Shown in pieces: positions 59 through 62,588 of a stretch of DNA of 64,000 nt. Numbering within the stretch: position 1 is the stretch's first letter; every line of letters starts with the position of its first letter. The stretch is taken from assembly GCF_001640025.1 (NCBI RefSeq), contig NC_031674.1, positions 2,108,001-2,172,000 on the forward strand, read 5' to 3'. Made by a program: the position numbers and the translations under genes. Origin of the DNA: Sugiyamaella lignohabitans. Taxonomy: Eukaryota; Ascomycota; Dipodascomycetes; Dipodascales; Trichomonascaceae. The notes under the pieces were generated by a model, which was given only the letters and a program-made list of their open reading frames with translations, ran no database searches and was not told the origin of the DNA.

Positions 59-194
59 TGCCTCCGGCGGCTGGGGCTCCGCCCCAGACCCCGTTGCTCC
101 TGCTTCGCAGGAGGCTGCTGGGACCCCCTTTTCCGACTCGAGCGAAGCGAGAGGAGCAGCGGGGTATGGGGCGGAGCCCCAGCCGCCGGAGGCA
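59..194. repeat. GC-rich fold-back element, copy A
   Basis: A 136-bp element starts TGCCTCCGGCGG and ends with the reverse complement CCGCCGGAGGCA. The left arm contains two perfect small hairpins, CTGGGGCTCCGCCCCAG and CTCCTGCTTCGCAGGAG. The right arm is complementary to the outer left arm but carries a different inner segment (CGACTCGAGCGAAGCGAG), so the copy is chimeric between two inner subtypes. It lies 37 bp beyond the stop codon of EGO3. No target-site duplication is evident. Confidence 0.9.
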
Positions 195-231
195 AATCCG
201 AGTCCGTAGAGAAATAAATAAGATTATATTA

Positions 232-891
232 CTATTCGTAGACTTGGAAGTCTACTAGACCCTCTTCGAGGACTCTGGCTGTCTCTTTGGCTTTATTCGC
301 TACGAATCCGAGCGGTGTAGCCGGGTCGGCGACTAAGATTAGCAGCAGAAACTGGTTTACTTTCCGTAACCTGACTGAGTGAATGACAAAAAGTGCATCG
401 TCTGTTTCTAGGGCGAGCCAATTGCGGTCAACTTTCGCTTTGACTGTCTCAGAGCTCTTGCTGGGTGTTGTGATCGAGAGAGACTCGACATCTCGGTCTT
501 CTGAACTTTCCACCTCGGGCTGTGTTACTGTTGACGTTCCGGAACGTCCCCCATTGTGATGCTCCATGTCGTATTCTTCCCATATAGCAGATGCAAATAG
601 TCCGTAGACTTTGGTTTTTAATGGTCTATCAACATGATAGGGTGTGATTGTTTGTGTTTGAGATGGTGTTCCCATTCCAGATGTAGAAGGCTCATGTCGT
701 GGTATTGGTGGAATTCGAGAGTTGTGGTATGACGATACTGGACGTCCATTTGACGTGACCAATATCGAAGAAATAATCACCGTTGACGAATGGTGGAGAT
801 ACTCTCTTAACTGTTCGGCAGTTGCGTGCTGCTGGGCATCCTGTTGGACACTTTGTGCTAGCACACTGGCAACTGACTGATACTTGAGCAT
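232..891 (-). CDS. EGO3: EGO complex subunit 3 (Slm4/Ego3), roadblock-type scaffold
   Basis: The 219-residue product resembles yeast Ego3/Slm4, the LAMTOR2-like roadblock protein of the EGO (Ragulator) complex, which anchors the Rag GTPases Gtr1/Gtr2 on the vacuole and activates TORC1. The N-terminal block (residues 1-50) with an SSTVIISSILVTSNG-type strand matches the family opening. The middle TKVYGLFASAIWEEY block corresponds to the helix that ends in a W-x-E/D motif. The C-terminal LLLILVADPATPLG block, followed by a long helix, completes the roadblock fold. It is longer than the S. cerevisiae protein (about 160 residues) because of a Ser/Thr-rich loop near residues 60-80 and another near 115-145. 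The start is the first ATG. No intron is needed. An E-box lies about 120 bp upstream. Assignment rests on motif similarity by eye. Confidence 0.72.
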   Translation of the reverse strand: MLKYQSVASVLAQSVQQDAQQHATAEQLREYLHHSSTVIISSILVTSNGRPVSSYHNSRIPPIPRHEPSTSGMGTPSQTQTITPYHVDRPLKTKVYGLFASAIWEEYDMEHHNGGRSGTSTVTQPEVESSEDRDVESLSITTPSKSSETVKAKVDRNWLALETDDALFVIHSVRLRKVNQFLLLILVADPATPLGFVANKAKETARVLEEGLVDFQVYE

Positions 892-1199
892 TTCAATGAT
901 GCAACTTGAACCTTGTAGATATGGTTTTGTTTGTGTTTCTATGAATGAAAACGACTCAGAAACCTATGAAAGTAGTTGATATCGAGATCTCACCGCATAT
1001 CGTACATGTCACGTGCCCAGAAAACGGGACGGCACTTTTCACCCCCTGTTTCGCGATGAATAAACTAAAACTTTGAAGCTCTTAAATACTCTTTTCTCGT
1101 TTTGTTCTCTTTAAAGAATGTATTAGATATACAAAGATCAACATTTATGTAACAACAGGTTTTTATATTATAATTAAATTTTCATTTTATTTCTACCAT
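892..1199. promoter_or_regulatory. EGO3 promoter / RPB2 3' region with CACGTG box
   Basis: This is the interval between the RPB2 stop and the EGO3 start, both on the minus strand. A CACGTG E-box (the Cbf1/Pho4-type core) lies at 1010-1015, about 120 bp upstream of the EGO3 ATG. The part next to RPB2 (1080-1199) is AT-rich and fits a 3' UTR and polyadenylation zone. Nothing else is seen. Confidence 0.45.
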
Positions 1200-4100
1200 T
1201 TAGACTCTGACAGATACACCAGAACTGTCAGTGTATAATCTTGGTGCAATGTTCATAGCCATAAGTTCTTGGAATAAGAGCTTGGCGGCATATGGGATGT
1301 GAACTTGGTAGATTTTGGTCTTGTTCTTACATGAACGACATTCAAATTGCACCTTTTTCAAATTAGCAATGACAGTCATAAGACCACACACACCACACAC
1401 ATGGACTCGGAACGCATCTGAAGCCTCCATAAGACGCTCCTTCAAGAACGCAGCAGCTCCGTGAGCAATCATACAATCACGTTCCATCTCTCCGAAACGC
1501 AAACCACCATCACGCGATCTACCTTCGACTGGTTGTCTAGTAAGAATCTGTACGGGACCACGGGCTCTGGCATGGATCTTGTCGTCGACCATGTGTCTCA
1601 ATCTTTGATAATAAGTAGGACCGAAAAACACTTGGGCAACAAGCTTACGTCCAGTATGACCATTGTACATGACCTCAAAACCTCTTGAATGGTAGCCATG
1701 TTCACGCAATAACCGGGAAATTGCCTCTACTGTAACGTCGGTAAATGGTGTAGCATCACCTTCCAAACCCGACAGTGATGACACTTTACTCAATAAACAT
1801 TCAATCAAATGGGCGACTGTCATACGAGATGGAATGGCGTGTGGGTTGATAATGAGATCTGGCACAATACCTTCAGCAGTAAATGGCATATCTTCACGAC
1901 GGTATGTAACACCAATAGTACCTTTTTGACCGTGACGCGATGCAAACTTATCACCGATTTGAGGAACCTTGGTGGTTCTCATTCTAACCTTGACAAACCT
2001 CAGACCCTCTTGGTTCGTGGTCAGTAGAACTTGATCCACGATACCATTCTCAGTACTTCTCAGCGGTGTAGAGGCATCTCGCTTAGTATGGTACTTGGTC
2101 CGTTGGCCAAGTTCTTCGGTATCTGGAGGAATAGGAGCAGTTTTACCAATGATAATATCTTCACCAGACACACGAATACCAGGAGCGATAAGTCCATCCT
2201 CATCAAGCTTATCATATGTACCATGCTTGAGTCGAAGAGTATCAGCCCTAGTAGGCTTTTCAAACTCTTCAACAACAGACATACCAATTCTACGCTCCTG
2301 ATCCATGTAAGATCTGAAAAACAAACTTCGGAATAATCCACGGTCGATACTACTTTGGTTCATAATCATGGAATCTTCCTGGTTGTATCCACTGTAACAA
2401 AGAATAGCTACAATAGCGTTTTGTCCGGCTGGCAACTCTCTAAACTTCAAGTATTCCATTGACCGGGTAGTTGCCAATGGCTTCTGTGGATAATACAAGA
2501 TGTTGGCCATAGTATCCATACGGACCGAGTAATTAGTCAAAAACACACCCATGGCCTGTTTTCCCATAGCAGACTGGTATGTGTTACGAGGTGATTGATT
2601 ATGATCGGGGAAAGGAATAATACTGGCACAAATACCTAGAATCATGGATGGATGAATCTCACAGTGGGTCCACGTGTGTGCATTGGGGTTGTATGACTGT
2701 TTCACTCTACGAGCTGGATCTGGGTCTTCATCATCAGCAGCCACTTCAATACCGGCCTGCATTTGTCGCGAGACCTCCAAATCCTCTGGCGTCATGGCAA
2801 TCATGACTGTCTCCTCCTCCTCACCATCAATATATTCTACAATTCCATTTGACACCAGCGAATTCCAGCCAAACTTTTCTGGAGCATTCTCATCAGTCTC
2901 ATCAACAGGAGCCTCCTCAGCGTTGAGCAACTCATAAATGTGTTCCTTGCGAAGCATCAACTCACCCTTACGGGGCGACTCCTCATCGTTGTCGACCAAA
3001 AAGAGTGGTCTGTAAACACGACCAGCGTCCGTGAAAATACGGAACTCTTTCTCACGAATGTCTCTAATAATGCTGACTTCAGGAGAAATGTCACCTTTTC
3101 GTCGTAACGCCTTCATGGTTTCGACCAGATGCGAAGGGTCTCTATGAACGCCAATCCAAACACCGTTCACAAAAATTCTGATAGCATCTGGCGATGCGTG
3201 TGGCACATAGTCTTCCAGAGGCTCCATACCCCATTCTTCCAAGAAATAAATAATAGGTTGAGATGGACTACCAACCGAAATGCACGACATGAGTGACAAA
3301 TTCTTGACCAAACCACACGCCTGACCTTCAGGTGTTTCGGCGGGACACACAAGACCCCAGTGAGTATTGTGTAATTGACGAGGACGGGCGATTTTACCAT
3401 CTCTTCCGATAGGGGTATTTGTTCTTCTCAAATGTGATAGAGTCGATGAGAATGTATATCTGTTGAGTACCTGAGAAACACCTGCTCTACTTGACATAGC
3501 CTTCTTCTGGTCACCCCAGTTACCCGTAGCCAGAGAGTATTTGAGACCATTTGTGATTGTATTTGACTTGACAGCCAGTGTAAGATTGAAATCCTTGTTT
3601 GTTTCGACGCACTTTTGCATGTATCGATAAATATCACGAGTTAACTTTTTGAATAGCATACGGAACAGATTAGCAAGAAGTGGACCTGCCAAATCAAGAC
3701 GCTTTTTACCAAAATGATCACGGTCATCTGGTTCACGACGCTCCAGCACCACTAAAAGCATTCGATGAACCATATAACCCAGGAAAAATGCCTTTCTAGA
3801 CTCATAACCTTCTTGTTGAGTAATATGAGGCAACAACTCCTTCTGAAGAATATCACGAGCATATCTAATACGCTTCTCTCTGTTAATACCCATGGCACTA
3901 CCACGTCTACCGATATAATCGAGAGCCACTTCTCTATCTTGAACGAAGAATCCTTCTTCGATACATGGCTTAAGCATCTCGAGCATCTGCCAATCGTTTT
4001 GATCGTAACAGATATGTTCAAGAATATCACCATCAGGAACGACTCCTAATGCTCTGAATACCAGGACAATAGGGATATCACTCTTGACATAAGGCAAAGC

Positions 4101-5021
4101 AGCCTTAATTGTCTTTTCCTTGCCGAACAGCTTGATTTGCATGGAACTGATAAGACGAGAGCCCTTCTCCAGAGCACTACGGATTTCAGCCACGTGTGTG
4201 ACTGGAGAATTAGCTGCCTTCTTAAACACTTGAACAACATTGGCAGCACTTCTTTCTTGGGCAATCAACACCTTTTCTGAACCATTAATAACAAAGTAAC
4301 CACCTTGATCATAAGGACATTCATTGAGCTCATAGAATTCATGTTCTCGCAAACCACGAAGCATACAGAACTTGGATCGAAGCATGATAGGCACTTTACC
4401 GATATAAACTTTGGAAATGGGTTCCTCGGGTTCATTAGGATCTGGATACCATTCAATCTCATTGTTTCCAGTGCCACCATCTGCACCACGAGTACCTGGT
4501 GCACCACCAACATCCTTCGAGAAGAGAACACGCTTTCTCATATCCACATACAAAGGTGATGAATAGGTTAAATTTCGTAGTCTTGCTTCTTGAGGAAACA
4601 TTGGATGGGTACTACCATCAGCTTCAGTCATCGTAGGTCGTGACAAATAGATCTTGCCGAATGTGATCTCATACCGCTTATTAATGTTATCATCTGGAGT
4701 TGTGTGTTGAGCCGGCTGGTCAAGAATCAAGTTAGGATCTTCCCAAACCAACTCTTGAATAGTTGTTTCAATGAATTCATCAAACGAGTCTAATTGTTGA
4801 GACACCAACCCCTTCTCATTGAAGAAAGATGAAATGACTGTCCAGCAATCCTCGGCTGTGATTTCATTTTCCTCTTCATATCCATATGGATCATCCTGGA
4901 ATTCTGTATTAAATCGTTAGTTTTCACAAATCCTGTCACAGGTATCCATTTTTTACAACAGACTTGTGTCGTCTTAGTAAACGAATGTTCCATAGCTTGA
5001 CTAGTACTAACCTTGAGACAT
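1200..5021 (-). CDS. RPB2: RNA polymerase II second-largest subunit, two exons
   Basis: This encodes the beta-like subunit that forms much of the Pol II active site and wall. Exon 2 (4903-1200) is near-identical in long blocks to fungal Rpb2, including the hybrid-binding region, the switch and active-centre motifs, and the C-terminal zinc site CGVCG...CRSC. The reading frame stays open upstream of 4808, through [18 protein letters not shown], to an acceptor at 4904. Exon 1 (5021-5012) is only 10 nt, ATGTCTCAAG, followed by donor GTTAGT. The intron (5011-4904, 108 nt) has branch AACTAAC 12 nt before ACAG. Splicing gives M-S-Q-E-F-Q-D-D-P-Y, which aligns with the family N terminus. The full product is about 1237 residues (S. 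cerevisiae 1224). Zinc cysteines and catalytic-core blocks all appear intact. Confidence 0.98.
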
Positions 5022-6612: not shown

Positions 6613-6981
6613 ATGGCCTCACGACTTTCGGCTATTCAGTCTCTTTCGGAGAAAGCCAATCTTGAGGGTCACGAAGTCTCAGGAATTCTAGGAATTACCT
6701 TAGCAGAAAATGCTATTTTTTACAATAAAAATGTAGAAGATCCATTGGCGACAGCTACCATCGCTCTCCAGATCTGGAATTCATCTATCAAGTTATCTGA
6801 AATACAGAAGGACAAGAACTCTGAAAACGAAAATAACGACCTTAAACTTGTTAGGATTAGACAAGAAAGTTCCGAGATGTTTTTGGTATCAGGTAAGTTG
6901 GTTTTTAGAGCTCGCCCTAGACAGATGCTAACAAATTTGATAGACGGTGTTTATTTATTAATTGCAAGAGTTACGTTATGA
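6613..6981 (+). CDS. Small roadblock-fold protein, EGO2/LAMTOR5-like, two exons
   Basis: Exon 1 is 6613-6892 and exon 2 is 6944-6981. The 51-nt intron has donor GTAAGT, branch GCTAAC and acceptor GATAG. The spliced product is 105 residues. It begins MASRLSAIQSLSEK, has a GILGITLAEN strand, a helix of alanine and isoleucine residues, and ends VSDGVYLLIARVTL, the typical final strand of small roadblock/LC7 proteins. Ego2/LAMTOR5, a TORC1-activating EGO-complex subunit, is the best guess; S. cerevisiae Ego2 is about 75 residues. A dynein light-chain roadblock relative cannot be excluded. The longer TTG-initiated frame is not used because 6613 is the first ATG in frame. The intron length is a multiple of three with no stop, so intron retention would insert 17 residues without a frameshift. 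Confidence 0.55.
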   Translation: MASRLSAIQSLSEKANLEGHEVSGILGITLAENAIFYNKNVEDPLATATIALQIWNSSIKLSEIQKDKNSENENNDLKLVRIRQESSEMFLVSGKLVFRARPRQMLTNLIDGVYLLIARVTL

Positions 6982-10698: not shown

Positions 10699-10836
10699 GC
10701 AGATTCATCCAGATAGACTTCGTATTTAATCATAATATCATAATATAGCGCCATCAAACATCGTCGCAAGCCACCCACCGCTCGTAACGCATTTGAAAAA
10801 AAATTGGAATAAATTACTTATAAATAAATTAATTAT

Positions 10837-17697: not shown

Positions 17698-19014
17698 TGC
17701 CATTATAGCCTAACCCGCAGATATCTTACTGTCGGAGAATGGCGGTGATAGAAGGACGTTAACTTCGACTTAGGTGGTATAAATATCCGATACTCTTCAA
17801 TCTAGGACTTGTGGGTGGATTTTCATATAATCAAATTCTGTCCAAAAACCAAGGTCAGACTCTAACTGGTAAGCTTTACCCTGTCTGATACAGTATAACC
17901 GGGTCCGATACATAAGGTAACATAACTAAAAAGAATCACATATGCCCAATAAACCAGTAATAGCACTCAAGTTCTATTTTTCACGCAATCTGTAATGGCA
18001 AAGTATAGAAACATGAATCTGTTGGTGGTACTAGAGACAACCCCTGGATTAACTAGATTCGACAATAAGTTGCATTCTGGTCACCTACCCAGTAAGCCGT
18101 CCTGAACCCTAATACACGTCACCTATATAAAGACCTAATTTTCACTCGTCCAGTTACTTCTGCTTCGTGCTTATGAATTGAAAAATTGCGAATCGAAGCT
18201 TACTTAAGACAGTTTTGTCACAAGTGCTTTGGGGAAAGTCTCCGGTCACTACTGGCGGAAACGCATCTAGTGTAAAGAGACTAGGTATTTGTTCTCTGAA
18301 AAAGTAAAAAGAAGATTGAGATGTGGACTGAGCTGGCGTGCCTGACGATTTGTTGCCTCCATAGAGGCTAGACCTGTTCTGATATCGTTGATATGGCAAA
18401 CTCGCAGGTGCTCTGGTCGGACTACATTGCTATCAGATCATCTTTTCTTTTCTCAGGGAATGAATCAGACATAAAATTTCGACGATGTAGGATGTTTTCT
18501 ACAAACGATAGTTATGCAATTGCCTTCTACAGGTAACCCAATGGAGCTTAATCTCGATTCAGTAAGCATCAAATTTTTATCTCAAGCCTGTGTCTTTTAG
18601 GACAGTGTATAGTCAAATATACCAGGCTTTTTTATATAACATCCTAAATGATGAAATAAAAATGCAATCATAGAGTCAAGCTCCGAGAGGACAAAGATCC
18701 TCGTAGACGAGAATTGCTTAATTTTCTGATTTGGATACCATTTTGTAGTTATATAGTTCTCAATGTACATGCTTAGTAGTGGGGTTTTTCTGCAACTATG
18801 AAAAGTTAGTTCTCCATATCTCTCTCTATCTTGACGAGATAAAGACATTTCAACAAATTTTTAAAAATTTTTTAAATCTTTAAATTAAAACAGACAATAT
18901 ATATTGATTATGCAAATGCGTTATAAATTGGTTCTACGTATCAACTGGCTAAGCAAGCTGTAGTAATAGGGCGTAACATCGTAACAGTAATTTTAAAAAG
19001 TAACAAACCAAATA
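17698..19014. other. Intergenic between the retroelement and the ICE2 3' end
   Basis: About 1.3 kb with no gene I can support. Minus-strand frames at 18154-18399 and 18597-18848 lack an in-frame ATG or recognisable motifs. The second contains an intron-acceptor-like CTAACTTTTCATAG, so a small unrecognised spliced gene is possible but unproven. TATA-like boxes occur near 17780 and 18124. AT content rises strongly from 18850 to the ICE2 stop. Confidence 0.4.
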
Positions 19015-32305: not shown

Positions 32306-32481
32306 TGCCTCCGGCGGCTGAGGCTCCGCCCCAGACCCCGTGGCTCCTCTCGCTGCGCTCGAGTCGGGCGTTGCGGTCGCAACTACCGCTTCACCAGACG
32401 CTGCTGGGACCGTGACGTAACGACTCGAGCGCAGCGAGAGGAGCCGGGGGGTCTGGGGCGCAGCCCCAGCCGCCGGAGGCA
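32306..32481. repeat. GC-rich fold-back element, copy C, 3' of ADE4
   Basis: A 176-bp element starting 56 bp after the ADE4 stop. Its outer ends are standard. The inner arms are of the CTCTCGCTGCGCTCGAG subtype. About 50 bp of unrelated sequence forms the loop between the arms. Confidence 0.9.
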
Positions 32482-41374: not shown

Positions 41375-41828
41375 TGATAACGACGAACCGCTTCTTTTTA
41401 TCTCCAACTTCAATTTGCATTTTTTTACCCCATCTGGCTGGCTGGGTCTACTAGATGATGAACTTCTCCAGACTTTTTTTTTTGCGTGTTTCTTCTTGCG
41501 ACATGGCTCCTTGTTTTTCTATTACCCCCTGATCGCTTATTTATTTCCAGCATTAGCATGACTTGATGTCAATAATTATTAATTAAAGTTCGTACTGATA
41601 ATATGTTCTTGGGACCAGTGCCTCCGGCGGCTGGGGCTCCGCCCCAGACCCCGTGGCTCCTGCTTCGCAGGAGATACTAGGGGGGTCAGTAGTAATGATC
41701 TGTAGTGGAACGATGGTCAAAACTATGAGTCCCTATGTGATATATGTCAGATATTATTCACTCATCATTATTAATCATTAGCAGTATTGCTATGCTACTG
41801 TCATATAAATATAATACAGGTCCCGAAT
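41375..41828. other. Convergent 3' region of MIH1 and THOC7
   Basis: About 450 bp between converging stop codons. It contains T-rich sequence after MIH1, the left half-element at 41619-41680, and an AT-rich segment 41740-41828 towards THOC7. No gene is seen. Confidence 0.5.
41619..41680 (+). repeat. GC element, solo left arm D
   Basis: The left arm only: TGCCTCCGGCGG, hairpin CTGGGGCTCCGCCCCAG, then hairpin CTCCTGCTTCGCAGGAG. It stops shortly after the second hairpin with no matching right arm nearby. The corresponding right arm of the same inner subtype is found at 42964-43019, beyond THOC7. Confidence 0.85.
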
Positions 41829-42656
41829 CTAATAGGCCATTTCCACATCCTCTGCTTCTGCTTCCTTTGAATCTGTATTGACCACAGGTGCAGCACTTTG
41901 TTCTCTCGGCGTTTGAGGAGGAACCGGTGTACCAGCTACACTGTCATAATTCTCGGTGGCATTGTCAACATTGTGATCTGTGTCATCGTCATCAACTTCA
42001 CCCTCTCCCTCAAATGGCGTAGCTTCTCTGCTGCTATCTCCGTCTCTATCAGCACCTGCTCTGACCCTTTTAAGAAAAGATTCTGCAAATTCATCTACAC
42101 TGTTGGAGAATTGATCAAATTGTGCCCGCCGACTGTCCCACACTGCCTGGTACTTCGCCTTCTGAACTTCCAGCTCATTTATCTCTTCGCTTAAAGATTC
42201 ATTTAGCTTCTGATCTTCTGCTCTTGACGAGTTGAGTAACGCAATAATAGGAACTTTTCGATCGCCTTCATCAAGCATTACTTTCTTTGGCTTTACCATC
42301 TCGTCAACCATAGCACTACACTCCTCTTTCTGTGCCCGGATCACTTGTGCATTGGCCAATTTGTCTTGCAATTCAACCGACTTCTGCGTCAGTTCCAGAA
42401 TTGTGGCGTTTCCTTCATTTTTCTGTTCTTCATACTTGTGAATCTCCTTCTCATTCATATTAAGCTGCAATTGGAGCTGGTTCAGCATCATTTCATATGA
42501 ATCCAGCTCGATATTCAAAGCTTGCGATGAACTAGCTACCGTCTCGAGACTAGGCGTCTTTTCAGACACCATGGCCATACATATTTTCAGTAGACGTTTA
42601 TAGTTTGCTTCGGATGTTGTTATCCGCTCCCGGATAATAGCTTCTTCAGCATCCAT
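41829..42656 (-). CDS. THO complex subunit 7 homologue
   Basis: A 275-residue protein resembling the THOC7 family, the coiled-coil subunit of the THO complex that couples transcription with mRNA export (the S. cerevisiae counterpart is Mft1). The N terminus EEAIIRERITTSEANYKRLLK matches the family opening. Residues about 50-200 are predicted coiled coil: heptads, with the family's Q-x-K/R-I-R-A-x-K-E-E-C block (NAQVIRAQKEECSAM), and the WDSRRAQFDQF stretch that aligns with the RRKQFHVLL region of animal THOC7. The last 70 residues are acidic and disordered. It is flanked by the two half GC elements D and E. The start is the first ATG. Confidence 0.75.
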   Translation of the reverse strand: MDAEEAIIRERITTSEANYKRLLKICMAMVSEKTPSLETVASSSQALNIELDSYEMMLNQLQLQLNMNEKEIHKYEEQKNEGNATILELTQKSVELQDKLANAQVIRAQKEECSAMVDEMVKPKKVMLDEGDRKVPIIALLNSSRAEDQKLNESLSEEINELEVQKAKYQAVWDSRRAQFDQFSNSVDEFAESFLKRVRAGADRDGDSSREATPFEGEGEVDDDDTDHNVDNATENYDSVAGTPVPPQTPREQSAAPVVNTDSKEAEAEDVEMAY

Positions 42657-43073
42657 GTTGATGTAGTTGAAATCAGTGGAGAAGATCCTGCAATGTTCAT
42701 GACATGCAATAATGCAATAATATATGCAGTTACCCTGCCTTCAAGGATATATAGGTAATAGAAGGCCTGAACAATTTCTTGAAGCATTTGTTTCTTATTT
42801 TTATTCTTTTCTTATTCAAACAATTAAAGGGAGGAATTTAATATTTTTTGGGAGCTGGTTCCCCCATGCTCCAAGTTCTTTCAATGGTTCATGCAGGGAC
42901 AACACAGGTGCATTCCTCCAGGATCCCTCGAAACTTCCTCGTCTATCCTCAAAAATCTGGCAATCTCCTGCGAAGCAAGAGCAACGGGATCAGGGGCGGA
43001 GCCCCAGCCGCCGGAGGCAAAAGCTCTCGTAATAAAAAACATGCCAATATATAATAATATAATATACAATTAC
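42657..43073. other. Intergenic between THOC7 start and UTP13 stop
   Basis: About 420 bp with the THOC7 promoter side (42657-42960) and the right half-element at 42964-43019. A 54-bp AT-rich segment separates the half-element from the UTP13 stop. No gene is seen. Confidence 0.45.
42964..43019 (-). repeat. GC element, solo right arm E
   Basis: The right arm only. CTCCTGCGAAGCAAGAG (reverse complement of the CTGCTTCGCAG inner subtype, one mismatch) is followed by GGGGCGGAGCCCCAG and CCGCCGGAGGCA. It has the same inner subtype and the opposite orientation to arm D. It lies 54 bp from the UTP13 stop. Confidence 0.85.
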
Positions 43074-48458: not shown

Positions 48459-48497
48459 CGGCAATACACTGTACTATATTTACTGGGGTGGGGGGTG

Positions 48498-48820
48498 TGC
48501 CTCCGGCGGCTGGGGCTCTGCCCCAGACCCCGTGGCTCGCTTCGCTCGTTGCTCGGGGAGTGACTACTACTTGTCCTCTCGCTGATATCTGGACTTTCAG
48601 ATGTTTACTGGGGAAATATACTACGATTGAGCTTCTATAGAATAACCATCAGAATCCCGAGGTCACGTGACCAGCTCGCTAATCCCGCAGTATCTTTGAA
48701 TTTTAGAAAAAATAGTAAACCAGTTCCTTGGACACCTGTAGCCAGGGACACCCGACGCCCGACTCGAGCGCAGCGAGAGGAGCCACGGGGTCTGGGGCGG
48801 AGCCCCAGCCGCCGGAGGCA
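48498..48820. repeat. GC element arms F (left) and G (right) with about 200 bp between
   Basis: The left arm is 48498-48560 (inner subtype CTCGCTTCGCTCG). The right arm is 48756-48820 (inner subtype CGACTCGAGCGCAGCGAG, full outer end). They are correctly oriented to be one element, but the inner subtypes differ and about 200 bp of ordinary-looking sequence separates them. It begins 39 bp after the ERG2 stop. Confidence 0.8.
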
Positions 48821-49230: not shown

Positions 49231-52200
49231 ATGGATCCGTCTGTGATGCTACGGCTATGGTCGTCCAACGATCCACAAAAGCTTCACATTTTGGCCAAAG
49301 ATATTGAGACTCAAGGAACATGGCAGGCCTACTTGTCGGCCCAGGAACACAAGATCTTCGAGTATGCGGTCGAAAGAGGTGGTGACCTTTGGGCACAATT
49401 CCTTCAAGGAACAGTTCAATGCTACGTAGAGCATGTCCCCTCGACCATTAATGGTATGGCCAATGGAAATTTCTCTAGCAACTCTCCATCTGCCAATGGC
49501 GGTGGATCAGGTGCTGGTTTCAGTAAACGGACTAATGGCCATAGTAGTACTAATATGAATGGAAACGACGACTCACCCTACACGAGTCCACATTTCTCTC
49601 GAGTATCAGGCACGCCACAACCCAACTCAGGACCTACGTCATTTCTTGGAAAGTCAGCAGCAGCTGCTAGCGGGCTGTATCACAGCAACTCACGAGCTGG
49701 TTCAGCAGGGTCAGAACACGGCGGGGCAAATACTACAGGCACTGGTGCTGGTAATGTTCCTACTGTGACGACAATAGATGGTCTAACATTGGCGTTCCGA
49801 GTAAGATACATGTTATACGACAAAAGCTTGGGCCTGCTGTTCCCGGCCATTGGCAAATACATGCCATTCGACTTTGATTCGGCGCTATTCGAAGACAATT
49901 CCAAGTCAGTCGCTGAAGCACTAGCTGGGAGCCCGACAACAGCTGGTGCCAGCAGGACATCAGCGCGACCAGTCGACGATGACTACGATTTCGACGACGA
50001 AGACGAAGACGAGGACGAGCAACCAACCGACAAAATGCAGGTCGATAACGACAGCCAACGAACTACTAATGACACTAATAACGAACAAAACCAAGAACCC
50101 GACGAGGACGGCAAACTAATTATCAGAGGTAAGCTTTTCACGGGGTGACACGTGCCTCCGGCGGCCGGGCTCTGCCCGGACCCGTAGTGCTCGCTTCGCG
50201 AGCTTCCCGTGGGGGAAAGGTTGGTTGAGAAAATACTCGCGAAGCGAGTACCAACCGGTCCACGCGGATCCCGGCTGCCGGAGGCATGCCCACCGTCGCA
50301 GAACGAGCGACTAACGCGGATAGTGACGCTGGAAGACGACGATACCGACAAGAATGAGAGTAAAAGGACAAAAGAAGCCATTGCTAATTTCAAGCGGGTG
50401 TACCATACGTTTGAGAACGATCGTGAAAATCTGCTGAAACAGCGCAAGTTAGAGGAGTCTGATAGGCAGGTTGCGTCGGAGGAGGCTGCGAATGCCGAAG
50501 CCGAGGCTAATGAGGCCAGAAGCAAAGCAGACGGTAATGAAGCAGGTACTAATGGAAAACCTGGAGCCGTTGCCAGTGCGACTGCCGGGCCTGATAAAAT
50601 AGCAAGTACAGCGCAGTTTGGAGCAGCTAATTTGAGTTTGAAACATCTGTTGGCCACAATCGAGGCCAAGAGGGACCAGAACAGTCTGACTGATTTAGAA
50701 CTAAAAAACCTGATTTCGGACGTGCGGAAAAACCGGTCGAAATGGGCTAGCGAGGATAAAATCGGCCAGGAAGAGCTTTATGAAGCCGCTGAGAAGGTCG
50801 TATTAGAATTGAGAGGATACACTGAGCATTCAACTGCGTTCCTTAATAAAGTCAACAAAAGAGATGCACCTAATTATTTCAACATCATTAAAAAGCCCAT
50901 GGATCTGAATACCATCATGAAGAAACTGAAAACGTTCCAGTATAAAAGTAAAGACGAATTTGTTGACGACTTGATGCTTATCTGGTCCAACTGTTTTACT
51001 TATAACACGGATCCCAAGCACTTTCTAAGAGCGCATGCTTTGGCAATGCAGAAGAAGACATTTACACTGATTCCACTGATACCTGATATTGTTGTCCGAG
51101 ACCGGGCAGAGGTCGAAGCGGAAGAAGCTGCTGCATTGCGAGCTGCTAATATTGCTAATGGCAATGCCAATGGTGAAGAGAGTGGAGATGATAGTGCCCC
51201 AGGAACTGCTGGAGGTCTTGGTCAAGTCAGTGGTAAACATGCTACCAAGGGAAGAAAGCGGAAATTAGACAGTTCAGAGGAAGAGGAGATGAAAGAAGGT
51301 ACCGGCGGTGTTCCTCCGCCATTTGGTAGTCCAATGCAAGTAGCTGATGTTGCTGGTGCTTCTGGTAATGCTGAAACTGACGGCAATGCAAGTGGTGCTG
51401 GTGGGCCTTCAACACCAGCTCGAGATAGCCCATTCCCGTCTCTTACTGGGGCTTATTCTACACCGACGCCTGGACCAGGCGATATAGACATGGAATTGAA
51501 TGAAAGTATGAAGGAAGAAAGCAAGGAGCCTGTTTATGAACTGGATGTCGAGTCTCAAGTATGGCAGAATGTGTACTCCAAACAACGATCGGTGTATTGT
51601 GGCAAGCGAAGTGAACTTTTCAAAGATGACAAGATTCAACTGGATGCTGAAGCAAGTGCACGAAAATCTATTTCAATGGGCAAATTCGAGGAGAATTTAG
51701 ATAAGATGTTCAAACCCGAGGAGCAGGATGAAGATGAACAACATCCTCGAAGCAGGTTGTTTAGAGGCAGTCGCAGTCTATTAGACTCCCTAGAGACTGA
51801 CAAAGAACAATTCATCATGGAATATGAAGTGGCTGCTGGACTGCCCTCACTTCCAGACCGTCTCACAAGATACAATCTGTTCGATAGGGAAGGAGATGGG
51901 TCAAAAGATGATGGCCAGGATGATATTGAAGATGAAGATTTTAGAGCTCTTACACTAGAAGATATTCCACCTTCAGGATTCATGGTTCAGACAGGGCTGG
52001 GTCCTAAGATGCTCAATAATTTGCAAGAAATCCAGCAGATTCGCAAAGTATGTTCGAAAATCGCTCTCATCAGACAGATGCAACAGCAACCATACATGCA
52101 TGCCAACCAGATTGAACCATATAATCCTATTGAAATCGAGGAGCAGGATCTAGATCTCGCATCTCGTCTACCTAATCGCGATCATTACAACTCAGAGGTA

Positions 52201-53178: not shown

Positions 53179-53252
53179 CCATCATTTATTCACTATTTAA
53201 AAGCTCATGTGTACATTATAAAATTTTTTTAATTTTTTCGTGGGACGGGGTC

Positions 53253-53428: not shown

Positions 53429-53463
53429 GGCTGTCAACCCGAGAGTTACTATTCGTACATGAA

Positions 53464-57135: not shown

Positions 57136-57196
57136 CGGACCCTCTTCTCCTGTATATACATGTAAATATAATCATTTTGTGCTCTACTGGGGGCAA

Positions 57197-57376
57197 TGCC
57201 TCCGGCGGCTGGGGCTCCGCCCCAGACCCCGTGGCTCATCTCGCTTCGCTCGATTCGGGGCATAGACCGTCGAGGTCGCGAACCTCACGGAAAACGCCGC
57301 TGGCATCCCGACTCCCGACTCGAGCGAAGCGAGAGGAGCCACCGGGTCTGGGGCAGAGCCCCAGCCGCCGGAGGCA
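57197..57376. repeat. GC-rich fold-back element, copy J
   Basis: A 180-bp element in the convergent gap between MRPL35 and ATP21. The arms are standard. The inner left is CTCGCTTCGCTCGA and the inner right is CGACTCGAGCGAAGCGAG, which pair with each other. The loop is about 60 bp. Confidence 0.9.
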
Positions 57377-57544
57377 CGACCCCCACCAGAACATTCAGCG
57401 AGATAAATACGAGTAAATTGACAGTCAAAATGTACAAACTTCTAGAAACAAAACGTTAACCAGGGCACTTTTTAGATGGGTCGGCTATGCGAGCATGTGA
57501 TTGGGGTGGTGTAGATGGTGGGAGGGGACATGGAACCGGGGACT
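57377..57544. other. Short 3' region of ATP21
   Basis: 168 bp from the GC element to the ATP21 stop. Nothing is recognised beyond a presumed 3' UTR. Confidence 0.35.
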
Positions 57545-58022
57545 TTACTCTTTGAGAGCGTGGTCAATGAACTTCTCAATGTCGAAGTTGGGGTCATTGA
57601 TGTCGGAAACAACGTCTGACGAGGGCTTCTTGTGAAGCTCGGCGTACTTGGCCTTGGCCTCGGCAATCCACTTCTCCTTACGAGCGTATTGCTCGGCAAC
57701 GTGCTTCTGGACAGCCTCAGTCTGGAGAGACCGGTTGTGCACGAATCCGTAGGCAATGCCGGCACCGAAAACGGACCATCTGAGGACCTTCTCTTTGTTA
57801 GTTCCAATTCATCTTCAAATAATCTCCTATTCACAGGCCATTACTCTCGCAGCCGGAGTCTTTTTATCTGACCAGAAAGTTTTGCTGGACAATGACACCT
57901 GATGGATTAGCCGGCCAGCTTGGCTCGTAATTTCGTGAACTTTGGACGAGATTTTCTCACAAAGCCCGTCATTTCAAACATGTCATTCAGCCAGTACTTA
58001 CATTAAGAGCGGGAGAAACCAT
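57545..58022 (-). CDS. TIM11: F1Fo-ATP synthase subunit e, two exons
   Basis: Subunit e (Atp21/Tim11) is a small inner-membrane protein that drives ATP synthase dimers and cristae shape. Exon 1 is 58022-58002 (ATGGTTTCTCCCGCTCTTAAT). The 214-nt intron has donor GTAAGT, branch CTAAC and acceptor AAGAGAAG. Exon 2 is 57787-57545. The product is 87 residues: MVSPALNVLRWSVFGAGIAYG, with a membrane helix bearing a G-x-G-I-x-x-G dimerisation-type motif, then a coiled coil and an ending DPNFDIEKFIDHALKE. The acceptor is a tandem AG-AAG: using the nearer AG inserts one Lys. The distal site gives branch spacing like the other introns and the NVLRW alignment to yeast. Confidence 0.88.
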
Positions 58023-59055
58023 TGTGGATGTGTGGAATGAGAGTTGTGTGGAAAGTGACTTAAGCACTGCTGAACACTTTAGCTGCTGCTACTACTAAAT
58101 TTCAGTATCTTGAAAAATGTCAACCGGGGTTAGGTCATCGGTTCTTCCCAGATGGTCCATCACCAGCCAATCAGGAAAAGTCGTTTCTTCAACCTCGAAA
58201 AAGCACCGGCACGTGATGTGCGGCTGCTCAAGGGGTGGGGATGTGATGCCTCCGGCGGCTGGGGCTCTGCCCCAGACCCCATGGCTCCTCTCGCTGCGCT
58301 CGAGTCGTTACGTCGGGATGTCGGAGGTGTTGAGGAGCTGTTGGTGATATTAGGTGCTGGACTAGTTATAAATTGAGTGAGCTGTGATTGGCTTAGAAAG
58401 TGCGTAGTAAGAGTTCTAGAGATCTGAATCATTTCCTGATTTATTGTTATTTAGTGGAAATGAAATTCATACTAGCTCTATTTTCCTGGTATTTTTTGAT
58501 GTCGTTTAAATTAGTATATTGCAATTGGCTCTAAATGAACTTCAAGATATGGATTAGACATTCTGCTGTATTGACTGTGGCTCATCTGCCAAACAGTTCA
58601 TATAACTATACTGAAATTGTTCAATTTCTCGTAGTCAATAGAAAGCTGATAACATCAATAATTTGTACTCCTTTAACCTGAATAGCGCCATAGTACTCAT
58701 TTATTTACCTCTGCAGCTGGGGAGTCTCAATGGCTTATTGGGACCACTCATGACAGATGTGCGATTTCTTAGAAAAGAGTTCTATAATTTTTATAAAACT
58801 CTTTTTGTTAAATTATGATCAACGTATATTTATATTATAAAAACTGCTTTATTTTACTGCTAGTATTATTTCTTTTACTATCAGTATAAATTATCTGAAA
58901 ACACAGCTTGACAGGATCGTTTCAGTAGCTGTACGGCGTTGCATCATTACATTACAGGATCCTGTCGGATCACCACTTATCATCACCTCTGAACTGTATA
59001 TCAAGTCCCAAAATTTAACAGTAAACTGAACAATCTGTTACAAATATTCGCATAA
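58023..59055. other. Intergenic between ATP21 and EMC10
   Basis: About 1.0 kb between divergent genes. It contains a solo left GC arm at 58247-58307. From 58430 to 59055 it is AT-rich with no supported gene. No RNA gene is seen. Confidence 0.4.
58247..58307 (+). repeat. GC element, solo left arm K
   Basis: The left arm only, of the CTCTCGCTGCGCTCGAGTCG inner subtype. No right arm is found within the following kilobase. It lies about 225 bp upstream of the ATP21 start, in its promoter region, unlike most copies. Confidence 0.85.
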
Positions 59056-59634
59056 ATGAGTTCCTTACTGCCTTTGAAATTAGTTGCATTGCTGATTTTA
59101 TCATTGGCTGCTGTGATGGCATCAGAGAATACTCTGTCTATTCCGCTATATCTGCGGACCTTCGAATCATCGGCGTTATTGCCTAAGGCTCTGATACAAT
59201 ATGATACACGTTCCCATCAGACTCAATTGATATTGTCCAATGAACCTCGTACTGCGTCATTTGAAGGAGATGCATGTTTGGGTGTAGAAAATGAGGCTGG
59301 TGAGTTCAAGTGCCTTCAGTTAATCAAGGCTACCGGTGCATCATCAATTCCAGAGTCGTTTATTCTGCAACTATCACCTTCTTTGACTGGGGACTTATTC
59401 CAAGATGTTGCTGGCATCAACTATTCAATTGATCCATCATTAACAGAATCTGTTGCTGTGGTTAAATCTGCTCCTAAAGGACCTGTTCCAGAAGTTAAAG
59501 AGCAGATTAAGCTGGTAGATAACAAGATCCCCGAGCCTCCTGTTGAGAAATCTTTCATTCAAAAATACTGGATGTATATTCTTCCAGTTGCTTTGATGCT
59601 GTTAGTGTCTGGCGGTGGTGGTGAGCAGCAGTAA
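59056..59634 (+). CDS. EMC10: ER membrane complex subunit 10
   Basis: Emc10 is a lumenal subunit of the EMC insertase that places membrane helices in the ER. The 192-residue product has a signal peptide (about residues 1-23) and a lumenal beta-sandwich (SIPLYLRTFESSALLPKALI, ACLGVENEAGEFKCLQLIKA). Its two cysteines (74 and 85 region) probably pair. A C-terminal membrane helix, YWMYILPVALMLLVSG, is followed by GGGEQQ, like the GGGG tail of yeast Emc10 (YDR056C). The start is the first ATG. Confidence 0.88.
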   Translation: MSSLLPLKLVALLILSLAAVMASENTLSIPLYLRTFESSALLPKALIQYDTRSHQTQLILSNEPRTASFEGDACLGVENEAGEFKCLQLIKATGASSIPESFILQLSPSLTGDLFQDVAGINYSIDPSLTESVAVVKSAPKGPVPEVKEQIKLVDNKIPEPPVEKSFIQKYWMYILPVALMLLVSGGGGEQQ

Positions 59635-59963
59635 AGAACAAACTTAAAAAAATAAATTTCATCTGTCTGTTGTTACTCTTTTTTTGTACATTATCTACAG
59701 TTCGGCCGGCTGAGCAACGGTTAACGGTCTCGTGGCACGACTAAATATTATGCGAAGCATCTTCTACAAACACAAAATAAAATAAAATATGTGGCTGTAT
59801 TTATGAATATCTAACTTAGTTGTGCTGTACTTTTGGTTATTGATTATTGATTGCGTTAGTACTACTCAGTATAAAATTGTTGCCGAAAAATCATTAGTCC
59901 AAAATTCCTACTCCATCGACTATTATCGCGACCGTCACTGCACCACCAGTGCTAGGATTTGCC
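59635..59963. promoter_or_regulatory. Intergenic upstream of the proline-rich ORF
   Basis: About 330 bp: EMC10 3' UTR with a T run, then AT-rich sequence with an AGTATAAAAT TATA-like box near 59869, about 95 bp before the next ATG. Confidence 0.4.
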
Positions 59964-61214
59964 ATGGGTTTGTTCAGTAGGAAGAAGAGATCGAAAAAAG
60001 TAATCAAACCTCCTCTGACCCCGGCAAAATCCAGTCAATCTAAGCCTCTAAGTCCCAGGTCTGAGAAACAAGCTGTTGTTAATGAACATATCAAAGAAAC
60101 TTCTGAAGTCTCTGGACTCATACAAAAGAATTCAAAGCCAGAAGGTAACCAGAGACAAGTACCACCAGTACCGGCTCCAGTACCAGTATCAGTATCAGTC
60201 TCAAAACTGGCACCAACACTGGCACCACAATTGGAATCTAGACCCCCGCCAGTAACAGTAGCTGCACCACAGGTGGGAACTGTTGTACCTCTCACAACAG
60301 TACCAGCAAAGGTAGCAGCAATTGCAACAGCAGTACCGAGATCAACATCAACAACAATAACACAAGATGTAGCTCGGAACGAGTTACCTACTTCAACTTT
60401 GGGCAATAACCAAGGCCAAGAGTCCATCTCTGTGACTTCTCTTCGAGGAAGCGAAGTTGGCAATGAGAATGTTAATGTTAATGCCGGTGCCAATGCCAGT
60501 GCCAGTGCTCCTAATAAATCATCCACCGCGAATCTCAACCTGGTCAACCCACTGAGACCCACACTCGCACCTCTCGGAAACTCGACCGTCAATTCCAGAA
60601 GAGGTTCAAATGTATCCTGTGAGACAGTCAGTTCTGCGAAATCTGCAGACCTGCTCGAGGAAGTGCTTTGTAAAACACCCAGTCAAACTCAAAGTGTTCC
60701 TTTTGCTTCCTACCAGGACACAAAACATTGCCATCAAGTTTTCCAACAGCAGCAGCAACCACTACAGCAGCCAAAACCACCACACCAGCAATCGAGCCTG
60801 CCAATGCTTCACATGGCACCACCAAACCTGGTAGTTTTCGACAGTAAAGGGAATCCCTTTTACGTGCCAGAGCATTCGAGACCGGAGCCACAAGGCATTT
60901 TGAAGATATTCTCGAGATCGAAGCAATGTGTTTCGAGCTCGGTCGACGCAGTAGGACTTCGCGGGGTTCTGGCACACCCACGGTTTCTCTTCTGTCTGTG
61001 TGCCGTAACATTATATTATGCCACGGGAATCCAGGGAGTCATTGTCGTTTTCATTCTGCTGTTGGTGATCCTAGAAATCAAAATCGAGACCATCAAAACG
61101 CTTTCGGCGACCCAGCGAATACCAGAACCCGTCCAATACAGCCGTCTTCGAATCCGCCAAGACGCCCCTCCACCACTTCCATCTGGATCCTGCGAAGCCA
61201 ACCCTGCCATCTGA
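59964..61214 (+). CDS. Unrecognised proline-rich protein with C-terminal membrane segment
   Basis: A 416-residue product that I do not recognise. It starts MGLFSRKKRSKKVIKPP, a strongly basic N terminus. Residues about 15-270 are low complexity and rich in Pro, Val, Ser, Thr and Ala, with a short Gln run near 260. A conserved-looking block, NLVVFDSKGNPFYVPEHSRP and GILKIFSRSK, lies at about 285-325. Two adjacent hydrophobic segments (about 340-360 and 362-380) form a membrane hairpin. The last 35 residues are Pro-rich. The start is the first ATG; a longer frame opens with a GTG. It could be an ER- or endosome-associated adaptor, but no function can be assigned. GC element L lies 49 bp after the stop. 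Confidence 0.65.
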   Translation: MGLFSRKKRSKKVIKPPLTPAKSSQSKPLSPRSEKQAVVNEHIKETSEVSGLIQKNSKPEGNQRQVPPVPAPVPVSVSVSKLAPTLAPQLESRPPPVTVAAPQVGTVVPLTTVPAKVAAIATAVPRSTSTTITQDVARNELPTSTLGNNQGQESISVTSLRGSEVGNENVNVNAGANASASAPNKSSTANLNLVNPLRPTLAPLGNSTVNSRRGSNVSCETVSSAKSADLLEEVLCKTPSQTQSVPFASYQDTKHCHQVFQQQQQPLQQPKPPHQQSSLPMLHMAPPNLVVFDSKGNPFYVPEHSRPEPQGILKIFSRSKQCVSSSVDAVGLRGVLAHPRFLFCLCAVTLYYATGIQGVIVVFILLLVILEIKIETIKTLSATQRIPEPVQYSRLRIRQDAPPPLPSGSCEANPAI

Positions 61215-61263
61215 AAACTACAAAAACTTAAAGCATGCTACTTAAAACACACGATATCCTATA

Positions 61264-61403
61264 CGGCCTCCCGCGGTTCGGGCTCTGCCCCAGACCCCGC
61301 TGCTCCTGCTTCGCAGGAGACCCATGGGACCGTCGACGAAACGACTCGAGCGATAGCGAGAGGAGCCACGGGGTCTGGGGCGGAGCCCCAGCCGCCGGAG
61401 GCA
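61264..61403. repeat. GC-rich fold-back element, copy L
   Basis: A 140-bp copy between the proline-rich ORF and the hydrolase. Its left outer end is degenerate (GGCCTCCCGCGGTTCGGG) and no longer pairs fully with its right end CCGCCGGAGGCA. The inner hairpins are of the CTGCTTCGCAG (left) and CGACTCGAGCG (right) subtypes. Confidence 0.85.
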
Positions 61404-61499
61404 GCGTCCGACCCGGAAGCTTCCGTGACGTAGGTTCCCCACATAACTCACTGGAGATATATCACCCTACCGGAAGATGGGTTCAGGACCGCAACAATA

Positions 61500-62405
61500 A
61501 TGTCGTTTCCCGGGTTTACTGAGTTCTCGATCGCTATCGAGGGTTCTGAGACCCCTGTGAACATTTTCGGTGTGCACAAAAAGGGGCCCAGCCCCGATAG
61601 TGCCGCGGTGTTGCTGGTGCACGGGTTCCCGCAGTCGCATCTGATCTGGCACAAGATAGCTCCTAAACTGACTGAGAAGTACTCAGTTGTAGCCATTGAC
61701 CTTCGAGGTTATGGAAAATCGTCCAAGCCCAGTAGCAAGGACGATTCTAGCCATAGTTTGTACAGCAAGCGTTCAATGGCGAACGACTGTGTTGCAGTGA
61801 TGAAGTCGCTGGGATATGACCGGTTCTATTATATCGGTCACGACAGGGGTGCCAGAGTCGGTCACCGACTGTGTATCGACCACCCCAAAAGTGTCATCAA
61901 AATCATTTTGCTAGATATAGCTCCTACTCTGGCTATGTACATGGCCACGGACATGGAGTTCGCTACAGCCTACTTCCACTGGTTCTTCCTGATCCAGCCC
62001 AGTCCTTTTCCAGAGACATTCCTCACTTCCAATGCGGAGTTCTACGTTAACAATGCCCTTTCAGGCCAGCTCAAGTCGTCCAACAATTTCGTGCCGTCTC
62101 ATGTGTCGCAATATATCAACGTCCTCGGCACTTATGAGGGTGCCCATGCTGCCTGTGAAGACTACCGAGCAGCTGCAACAATTGATCTCGAACACGATCG
62201 CAAAGACGTTTCGGAGAACCGCAAAGTCACAGTGCCAATGACAATTCTCTGGGGAAAAGACGGAGTCATCGCCAAACAGTTCAATGGCCTAAAACTATGG
62301 AGCGACGTGGCCGACTCGGTCGCGGGTCACCCTGTCTCCTCAGGCCACTACATCCCAGACGATGCTCCAGACGACGTTCTCCAGACGGTCGAGGCCTTCT
62401 TCTAG
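61500..62405 (+). CDS. Alpha/beta hydrolase, haloacetate dehalogenase/epoxide hydrolase type
   Basis: A 301-residue single-domain alpha/beta hydrolase. The oxyanion region is VLLVHGFPQSHLIWHKIAP, the DLRGYGKSSKP loop is typical of epoxide hydrolases and haloacetate dehalogenases, and the nucleophile elbow GHDRGARVG places Asp115 as nucleophile. The catalytic His is in SGHYIPDDAPD near the C terminus. The acid is probably the Asp in LWGKDGVIAKQ. The HDRG elbow fits fluoro/haloacetate dehalogenase relatives, but the substrate cannot be read from sequence. Such genes are patchy in yeasts and often bacterial-like, so transfer is possible but unproven. It is flanked on both sides by GC elements (L and M). 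The start is the first ATG. Confidence 0.85.
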   Translation: MSFPGFTEFSIAIEGSETPVNIFGVHKKGPSPDSAAVLLVHGFPQSHLIWHKIAPKLTEKYSVVAIDLRGYGKSSKPSSKDDSSHSLYSKRSMANDCVAVMKSLGYDRFYYIGHDRGARVGHRLCIDHPKSVIKIILLDIAPTLAMYMATDMEFATAYFHWFFLIQPSPFPETFLTSNAEFYVNNALSGQLKSSNNFVPSHVSQYINVLGTYEGAHAACEDYRAAATIDLEHDRKDVSENRKVTVPMTILWGKDGVIAKQFNGLKLWSDVADSVAGHPVSSGHYIPDDAPDDVLQTVEAFF

Positions 62406-62416
62406 CTATGGGGTGC

Positions 62417-62588
62417 TGCCTACGGCGGCTGGGGCTCTGCCCCAGACCCCGTGGCTCCTCTCGCTGCGCTCGAGTCGTTTCGCGACGGGCCGGTCAGGAT
62501 TGAGACACTACAGGGACCGTAGACGCCCGACTCGAGCGCAGCGAGAGGAGCCACGGGGTCTGGGGCAGAGCCCCAGCCGCCGGAGGCA
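62417..62588. repeat. GC-rich fold-back element, copy M
   Basis: A 172-bp element in the convergent gap, 11 bp after the hydrolase stop and 36 bp from the SEC18 stop. The left end has one change (TGCCTACGGCGG). The inner arms are of the CTCTCGCTGCGCTCGAG subtype on both sides, with a loop of about 40 bp. Confidence 0.9.

What the first reader, a model, noticed from the sequence alone, without database searches (positions are those of the whole stretch)
59..62588. Family of GC-rich fold-back elements with conserved termini
About ten full copies and three half copies share TGCCTCCGGCGG at one end and its reverse complement at the other, with 55-60 bp complementary arms and a variable loop. They stand out sharply from the AT-rich background and encode nothing recognisable. 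No target-site duplication or transposase is visible. They resemble GC-cluster or MITE-like elements, but I cannot match them to a named family.
Basis: seen in the sequence. Interest (0 to 1): 0.8.

Follow-up and report, generated by a model that had tools for sequence, protein, structure and literature searches.

The report
Hairpin repeats flooding a yeast genome
A yeast's chromosomes carry thousands of copies of a short GC-rich DNA repeat built from tiny hairpins, often placed just after genes, and it looks like a chromosomal counterpart of repeats otherwise known from mitochondria and bacteria.

Summary
The window holds 9 inverted pairs and 3 half copies. The 15.9 Mb genome, probably Sugiyamaella lignohabitans (inferred), holds 5,858 exact copies of the 12-base terminus (reversed-pattern control: 2). 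The unit appears to be the half: an arm of about 55-60 bp made of short hairpins with three-base loops, found alone or as an inverted pair around a variable spacer. In the inner hairpins the loop reads G-N-A on one strand in 118 of 122 scorable cases, with the middle base free. That is the published rule for extraordinarily stable DNA mini-hairpins. The outer hairpin obeys it only in 90 of 126. Units lie within 100 bp after a stop codon four times more often than chance (23 of 79 against 5.6) and crowd into GC-rich domains whose genes also have high GC3. No target duplication and no Y1 transposase were found. Best reading: a nuclear analogue of mitochondrial GC clusters and bacterial REP/BIME repeats, spreading by DNA-level copying without its own enzyme. 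The spreading step is inferred. An identical 34-base string occurs in two Desulfovibrio-type bacterial assemblies.

The parts
59..194 (.). inverted pair, 136 bp, inner modules B (left) and A (right); 37 bp after a stop codon, between convergent ORFs
32306..32481 (.). inverted pair, 176 bp, modules A and A; 56 bp after a stop codon
41619..41678 (+). half copy (single arm, module B), between convergent ORFs, 150 bp after the nearer stop codon (THOC7-like gene)
42960..43019 (-). half copy (single arm, module B), 54 bp after the stop codon of an Utp13-like gene
48498..48820 (.). inverted pair with long AT-richer spacer, 323 bp, modules D and A; 39 bp after the stop codon of an ERG2-like gene
50153..50286 (.). 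inverted pair, 134 bp, variant with shorter outer hairpin, modules C and C; 4 bp after a stop codon
53253..53428 (.). inverted pair, 176 bp, modules A and A; between convergent ORFs, 35 bp from the nearer stop codon
57197..57376 (.). inverted pair, 180 bp, modules A and A; 61 bp after a stop codon
58247..58306 (+). half copy (single arm, module A), 1,111 bp after the nearest stop codon
61265..61403 (.). inverted pair, 139 bp, modules B (left, terminus with 2 mismatches) and A (right, interrupted by a 1-base insertion in the loop); 50 bp after a stop codon
62417..62588 (.). inverted pair, 172 bp, modules A and A; between convergent ORFs, 11 bp after a stop codon

Best explanation
These are nuclear GC clusters: a selfish, non-coding repeat family whose unit is an arm of about 55-60 bp, not the full fold-back. 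Each arm is a string of short hairpins with three-base loops: GCC-TCC-GGC, then CTGGGGC-NNN-GCCCCAG, then one of several interchangeable inner hairpins. Arms occur alone and in inverted pairs, sometimes close together. SHOWN HERE: copy number, modular anatomy, conserved arms around variable spacers, the loop rule in the inner hairpins, no detectable target duplication, excess after stop codons, concentration in GC-rich domains. INFERRED: when the DNA is single-stranded (replication, repair, transcription) the hairpins form and survive nucleases, and a copy is laid down elsewhere by template switching or break repair. Gene conversion then favours and homogenises the GC-rich arms, most where conversion is frequent, which would also raise GC3. 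Selection removes copies from coding sequence and promoters and leaves those after stop codons. Copies there would be transcribed as 3' UTR hairpins and may secondarily affect 3' end formation or stability.
For: 5,858 exact termini, control 2; 5,500 copies of terminus plus intact outer hairpin, 25 fixed bases. 50 of 154 arms are unpaired and inner modules combine freely. In 25 aligned B-A pairs the arms are mostly over 90% conserved per column and the spacer about 30-70%. G-N-A loops in 118 of 122 scorable inner hairpins, 98 of the first 100 listed A modules, with 1.61 bits at the middle base; GNA loops closed by G-C pairs make heat- and nuclease-resistant DNA mini-hairpins (PMC4686876, passages). 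No target duplication at 45 pairs. No Y1 transposase or DDE_3 match. Density correlates with GC3 of ORFs of 300 aa or more outside units, rho 0.80, 26 blocks. Regional subtype: tag CTGG in 37 of 62 typed arms of one dense block, 3 of 26 around the window, 0 of 13 in L001-L008.
Against: No empty site or new insertion has been seen; mobility is inferred. The outer hairpin follows the GNA rule in only 90 of 126, 65 of 100. The folding parameters on hand give all 64 triloops the same DNA energy, so the stability argument rests on the literature. Left-right arm covariation was not significant beyond regional similarity, which fits independent halves but gives no support to gene conversion between arms. 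The GC3 link could come from any regional mutation or conversion bias; neighbouring blocks are not independent. A pogo-like DDE_1 gene exists and the Helitron search was uninformative, so an enzyme cannot be excluded.
Confidence: 0.45

Rival explanations
1. A host cis-element kept by selection: a hairpin after the gene that stabilises mRNA, sets the 3' end or separates convergent genes, and has been spread because it is useful.
For: 23 of 79 units lie within 100 bp after a stop codon against 5.6 expected (maximum 13 in 400 draws), while starts show no excess, 7 against 5.3. In the window 8 of 9 pairs lie within 61 bp after a stop. The bacterial counterparts also follow ORFs: 8 of 9 distinct places. 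Arms are far better conserved than spacers.
Against: 56 of 79 units are not within 100 bp of a stop and 17 lie between divergent ORFs. 10 of 26 blocks of 10 kb have no unit although they hold ORFs, so most genes there do without. No orientation bias of modules towards the stop (7 against 5 near, 2 against 6 far).
Confidence: 0.25
2. A MITE family: non-autonomous DNA transposon copies moved by a DDE transposase, for example a pogo-like one, with the termini as transposase sites.
For: Conserved inverted termini, short length, high copy number. Two DDE_1 genes with open frames exist; one (L071) is a pogo-like frame of 799 aa with a complete pair on either side.
Against: No duplication of 2-8 bp at the ends of 45 pairs beyond shuffled pairs and none of 8 bp or more in 45-bp flanks; pogo-type TA duplication (recalled) is not seen. 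The other DDE_1 locus has no terminus within the 5.5 kb read. L071 has 6 termini in 5.5 kb, so pairs beside the gene are expected by chance. Half copies are common.
Confidence: 0.17
3. A SINE-like element copied through RNA by the genome's LINE-type reverse transcriptase.
For: 13 reverse-transcriptase matches, several with open frames over 1,000 aa. Post-stop copies would be transcribed.
Against: Two LINE loci share about 1.2 kb at the 3' side and neither 3-kb stretch contains the terminus or the outer hairpin. No tail or target duplication was seen.
Confidence: 0.04
4. An assembly or sequencing artefact.
For: Long hairpins are hard to sequence; no second assembly was available.
Against: Thousands of copies with different spacers, flanks and module combinations, lying among eukaryotic genes.
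Confidence: 0.01

Closest known systems
GC clusters of yeast mitochondrial DNA (e.g. GC42; PMC4478555, passages and one section)
   Same: Short, GC-rich, palindromic, non-coding, many copies, merging and shuffling of units, no enzyme of their own known
   Different: Here in nuclear chromosomes and in thousands of copies; longer paired form; no target duplication, whereas GC42 bears a putative AG duplication
Double-hairpin elements and other repetitive hairpin elements of organelle genomes (listing only; details recalled)
   Same: Tandem short GC-rich hairpins, patchy distribution, suspected mobility
   Different: Organellar; sequence relationship not tested
Bacterial REP / BIME repeats (PMC3733652, passages)
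   Same: Extragenic palindromes present singly and as pairs or clusters; roles proposed in termination and mRNA stability
   Different: REPs are 20-40 bp, in prokaryotes; the GTAG class is linked to Y1 transposases (RAYT), which this genome lacks by our search. The CGTC class apparently also lacks a dedicated transposase
Post-gene hairpin strings in Desulfovibrio-type bacteria (L015, L024, L045-L051)
   Same: Identical 34-base string GCCTCCGGCGGCTGGGGCTCYGCCCCAGACCCCG in L015 and L024; in 8 of 9 distinct places with the 21-base core an ORF of at least 100 aa ends 2-56 bp upstream
   Different: Different hairpins follow; the yeast inner modules were not seen. Exact 21-mer in 5 of 59 genomes of the family sample, two of which were the starting genomes
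MITEs
   Same: Inverted termini, short, non-coding, high copy number
   Different: No target duplication, variable interior, frequent half copies, no matching autonomous element found

Membership tests
MITE (non-autonomous class II) | terminal inverted repeats | tested here: met
   52 facing pairs within 700 bp in the sample, 45 of them 260 bp or less
MITE (non-autonomous class II) | target-site duplication of constant length | tested here: not met
   45 pairs, no excess over shuffled pairs at 1-8 bp at the ends or 6-10 bp in 45-bp flanks. The true outer boundary is blurred by a G-rich tract
MITE (non-autonomous class II) | autonomous relative with the same termini | tested here: inconclusive
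   DDE_3 none; two DDE_1 genes, one between complete pairs; whole genome not screened for all transposase families
Mitochondrial GC cluster | short GC-rich palindromic repeat | tested here: met
   mean GC 0.709 over 41 pairs of 200 bp or less
Mitochondrial GC cluster | located in mitochondrial DNA | tested here: not met
   contigs of 2.3-5.9 Mb with nuclear-type genes; the mitochondrial genome was not examined
Mitochondrial GC cluster | putative target duplication (AG for GC42) | tested here: not met
REP / BIME | extragenic palindromes as singles and inverted pairs | tested here: met
   52 pairs and 50 unpaired arms among 154; a few of the unpaired are weak matches (6 of 154 dropped)
REP / BIME | GTAG tag at the foot of the hairpin | tested here: not met
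   flank consensus before the terminus is G-rich then T-C/G; no GTAG in the pair consensus. The CGTC tag was not tested
REP / BIME | Y1 transposase (RAYT) in the genome, for the GTAG class | tested here: not met
   PF01797: 0 matches in G000, control rings in 5 of 14 genomes
Helitron-type element | Helitron replicase in the genome | tested here: inconclusive
   PF14214: 0 matches, but the control rang nowhere
LINE-dependent SINE | 3' end shared with a resident LINE | tested here: not met
   two LINE loci only
Extraordinarily stable DNA mini-hairpin (GNA loop with at least two G-C pairs) | GNA triloop on one strand | tested here: met
   inner modules 118 of 122 scorable (looser count 129 of 136 with 12 arms unscored). 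Outer hairpin only 90 of 126. Stability was not measured, and the folding parameters do not encode it

The most novel reading that the evidence does not exclude
A transposase-free repeat system in a eukaryotic nucleus whose replicating unit is a string of GNA-loop DNA mini-hairpins, copied from single-stranded DNA and driven by biased gene conversion, which has filled GC-rich chromosome domains with several thousand copies; bacteria have arrived at, or exchanged, the same 34-base hairpin code after their genes. If so, a DNA-hairpin 'grammar' spreads on its own in unrelated genomes.
Probability: 0.2. Interest if true: 0.88.

Novelty: new variant of a known kind. Interest (0 to 1): 0.7.

Why it matters
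Palindromic GC-rich repeats of this kind are known from organelles and bacteria, where how they multiply is still open. A chromosomal family with thousands of copies in a culturable yeast would let that question be tested by genetics: strain comparison for empty sites, crosses for conversion bias, deletion of post-stop copies. The single free base in an otherwise nearly invariant hairpin loop gives a concrete prediction, DNA mini-hairpin formation, that can be tested in vitro. The link between copy density and coding GC3 makes biased gene conversion a measurable candidate driver.

Tried and rejected
Rejected: one 1.4-kb element spanning 41619-43019; it is two half copies around a THOC7-like gene. 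Rejected: strict 3' UTR location. Not supported: covariation of left and right arms beyond regional similarity (64 of 2,000 shuffles reach the observed count for the tag, 175 of 2,000 for the outer loop; the A-module test had 4 pairs and no power). Not supported: orientation of modules B and A relative to the stop (7 against 5 near, 2 against 6 far). Not supported: RNA interference as a consumer of the hairpins; no Piwi match, though the control rang only in one archaeon.

Led nowhere: two translated frames of one element in the protein collection (no candidate). Plasmids and phages: none, only partial weak matches. Viral contigs: 0 for the 20-mer, 17 stretches with one 21-mer each, 31 with the A-module pattern (by my rough estimate near chance, not followed). 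Rfam: only RNase MRP elsewhere in the window. DNA folding parameters carry no triloop bonus. The genome collections I could search hold prokaryotes only, so presence in related yeasts is untested. Paper searches about this genome or such repeats listed no paper that I recognised as describing the repeat; I judged by titles, abstracts and the passages named in the report. The genome paper (Bellasio 2016) is not held and may mention it.
Full report
WHAT WAS GIVEN AND WHETHER IT IS THERE. The terminus TGCCTCCGGCGG occurs 23 times in the window with up to 2 mismatches, against a shuffled mean of 1.68. I dropped two (45088 and 54523) because no arm follows. The pairs are GC 0.57-0.74, and the two that were tested fold far better than dinucleotide shuffles.

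WHERE IT LIES. The window is part of a genome of 15.93 Mb in 4 contigs of 5.93, 4.95, 2.77 and 2.28 Mb. Its genes are eukaryotic: RNA polymerase second-largest subunit, Cse1, Utp13, ERG2 and others. A review lists Sugiyamaella lignohabitans at 16.0 Mb and 4 chromosomes (PMC5499181, passages; lineage). I take the organism to be that yeast, by inference only. The repeat is on nuclear chromosomes; the mitochondrial genome was not examined.

HOW MANY. The exact terminus occurs 2,942 times forward and 2,916 times reverse; the pattern read backwards occurs 0 and 2 times. Terminus plus complete outer hairpin, 25 fixed bases, occurs 5,500 times, and the inner A hairpin 3,399 times. In the sample I read, 118 of 154 arms have an exact terminus. 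If that share holds, the genome has roughly 7,600 arms, about 0.5 Mb or 3% of the genome; this is my estimate, not a count. The sample is the window, 200 kb in 20 stretches and about 20 kb. It is not random: five stretches were chosen because one search showed a dense cluster there.

ANATOMY. Each arm begins GCC-TCC-GGC, then CTGGGGC-NNN-GCCCCAG, then ACCC and a short tag, then an inner module. Of 154 arms 148 were kept and sorted: A 73, B 43, C 16, D 7, unassigned 9. Facing termini within 700 bp make 52 pairs, 45 of them 260 bp or less; 50 arms are unpaired. Pairs of A with B number 29, of which 25 are 136-162 bp; pairs of A with A number 8, of which 5 are 172-180 bp. Aligned in one orientation, 25 A-B pairs have arms mostly over 90% conserved per column and a spacer of about 30-70%. 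The outer hairpin keeps its pairing in a few shorter variants (CCGGGC-GCCCGG 5, CTGGGC-GCCCAG 2). Outside the terminus lies a further 10-12 nt that is 41% G around the window and 54% G in the dense block on the strand leading into the arm, against 19% and 23% further out. GGGGTC or GGGGTG abuts the terminus in 22 of 149 flanks, against 0.17 at other offsets. GGGGTC is the reverse complement of GACCCC inside the arm, so a hairpin-templated origin of this tract is possible; that is inference.

THE LOOP RULE. In the first 100 listed A modules, searched with the loop left free, the first loop base is T in 100, the third C in 98, and the middle one T 46, G 30, C 12, A 12. In 70 sample copies the middle base has 1.61 bits of entropy, against 0.29 or less at the 15 other module columns that were not fixed by the search seed; tag and spacer columns outside the module vary freely too. 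On the other strand the loop reads G-N-A. Over all inner modules 118 of 122 scorable loops fit (A 69 of 71, B 38 of 40, C 11 of 11). The outer hairpin fits less well: 90 of 126, or 65 of the first 100 listed genome-wide. GNA or GNNA loops with at least two G-C pairs are the published rule for extraordinarily stable, nuclease-resistant DNA mini-hairpins; GCGAAGC melts at 78 C (PMC4686876, passages). The DNA folding parameters on hand give all 64 triloops the same energy, so they neither support nor contradict this.

GENOMIC POSITION. With units masked so that ORFs cannot run through them, 79 of 96 units could be placed between two ORFs of at least 150 aa. 23 lie within 100 bp after a stop codon (random placement 5.6, sd 2.2, maximum 13 in 400 draws); 7 lie within 100 bp of a start (5.3 expected); 14 are convergent (9.1 expected) and 17 divergent (25.1 expected). 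In the window 8 of 9 pairs lie within 61 bp after a stop; the ninth lies upstream of a gene. So the post-stop excess is real, but most units lie elsewhere between genes. ORFs were found mechanically, without introns. [quoted passage not shown]

DOMAINS. Density is very uneven. Ten of 26 blocks of 10 kb have no unit, others up to 15. The first 100 forward termini on C1 have a variance-to-mean ratio of 4.24 per 20 kb. Density tracks GC3 of ORFs of at least 300 aa outside units: rho 0.80 over 26 blocks, mean GC3 rising from 0.378 in empty blocks to 0.454 in the densest. Blocks from one region are not independent. A tag variant (CTGG) makes up 37 of 62 typed arms in one dense block, 3 of 26 around the window and 0 of 13 in L001-L008. 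I read this as local spread or local homogenisation.

WHAT MOVES IT. At 45 pairs there is no target duplication. The genome has no match to Y1 transposase or DDE_3; the Helitron search is uninformative because its control was silent. Thirteen reverse-transcriptase matches exist, but in the two loci read at their 3' side no terminus or outer hairpin occurs. Two DDE_1 genes exist. One is a pogo-like open frame with complete repeat pairs on either side in a dense area; the other has no terminus in the 5.5 kb read. This does not look like an autonomous parent, but the whole genome could not be screened for one.

OUTSIDE THE YEAST. A scan of bacterial and archaeal genomes for 20 bases of the arm gave 16 stretches. 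Fourteen do not continue to the 34-base string; two (L015, L024, Desulfovibrio-type assemblies) do. Their genomes hold 41 and 9 copies of the 21-base core with up to 1 mismatch; 5 of 59 sampled family members have it exactly, two of them being the starting genomes. In 8 of 9 distinct bacterial places an ORF of at least 100 aa ends 2-56 bp upstream (in GC-rich DNA some such ORFs are spurious). I cannot tell convergence on the same hairpin code from exchange.

READING. I favour a selfish nuclear GC-cluster family that is copied at the DNA level as hairpins, enriched by conversion in GC-rich domains, and tolerated after genes (confidence 0.45). The copying and conversion steps are inferred. A selected post-gene element (0.25) and a MITE (0.17) remain open. 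It works like GC clusters and REP/BIME repeats but is not filed as a member of either: location and target duplication fail for the first, tag and Y1 transposase for the GTAG class of the second. It is not filed as a MITE because target duplication was tested and not found. No strain comparison was possible, so mobility itself is unproven.

Noticed in passing
window 18171-18564 (+): RNase MRP RNA gene, 94.9 bits against a gathering score of 50.
   Followed up: no
L071 1480-3879 (G000 C2, near 1,705 kb): Pogo-like DDE_1 gene, open frame of 799 aa, with a complete repeat pair on either side; possibly a domesticated transposase, which was not tested.
   Followed up: partly
G000, 13 places on C1-C4: Reverse-transcriptase (RVT_1) matches, several in open frames above 1,000 aa, some with identical scores, so recent LINE-type copies are likely.
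   Followed up: partly
L015 4653-4735; L024 1282-1440; L045-L051: Bacterial strings of GC-rich hairpins after ORFs, starting with the same 34 bases as the yeast arm in L015 and L024. Origin unexplained.
   Followed up: partly
outer flanks of the arms, e.g. window 48485-48497 and 57377-57390: A 10-12 nt G-rich tract leads into the terminus on both sides (C-rich on the top strand at the right end), with variable length and sequence. Its origin is unexplained.
   Followed up: partly
G000 C1:205001-255000 (L031-L035): Dense block in which arm tag CTGG dominates (37 of 62 typed arms), unlike the window (3 of 26): a regional subtype.
   Followed up: partly
phage records H19-H26 and 11 more not listed: Weak 21-24 base matches to the outer hairpin (E 0.4 to 4 in the rows shown), several in small single-stranded DNA phages; may be chance.
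   Followed up: no
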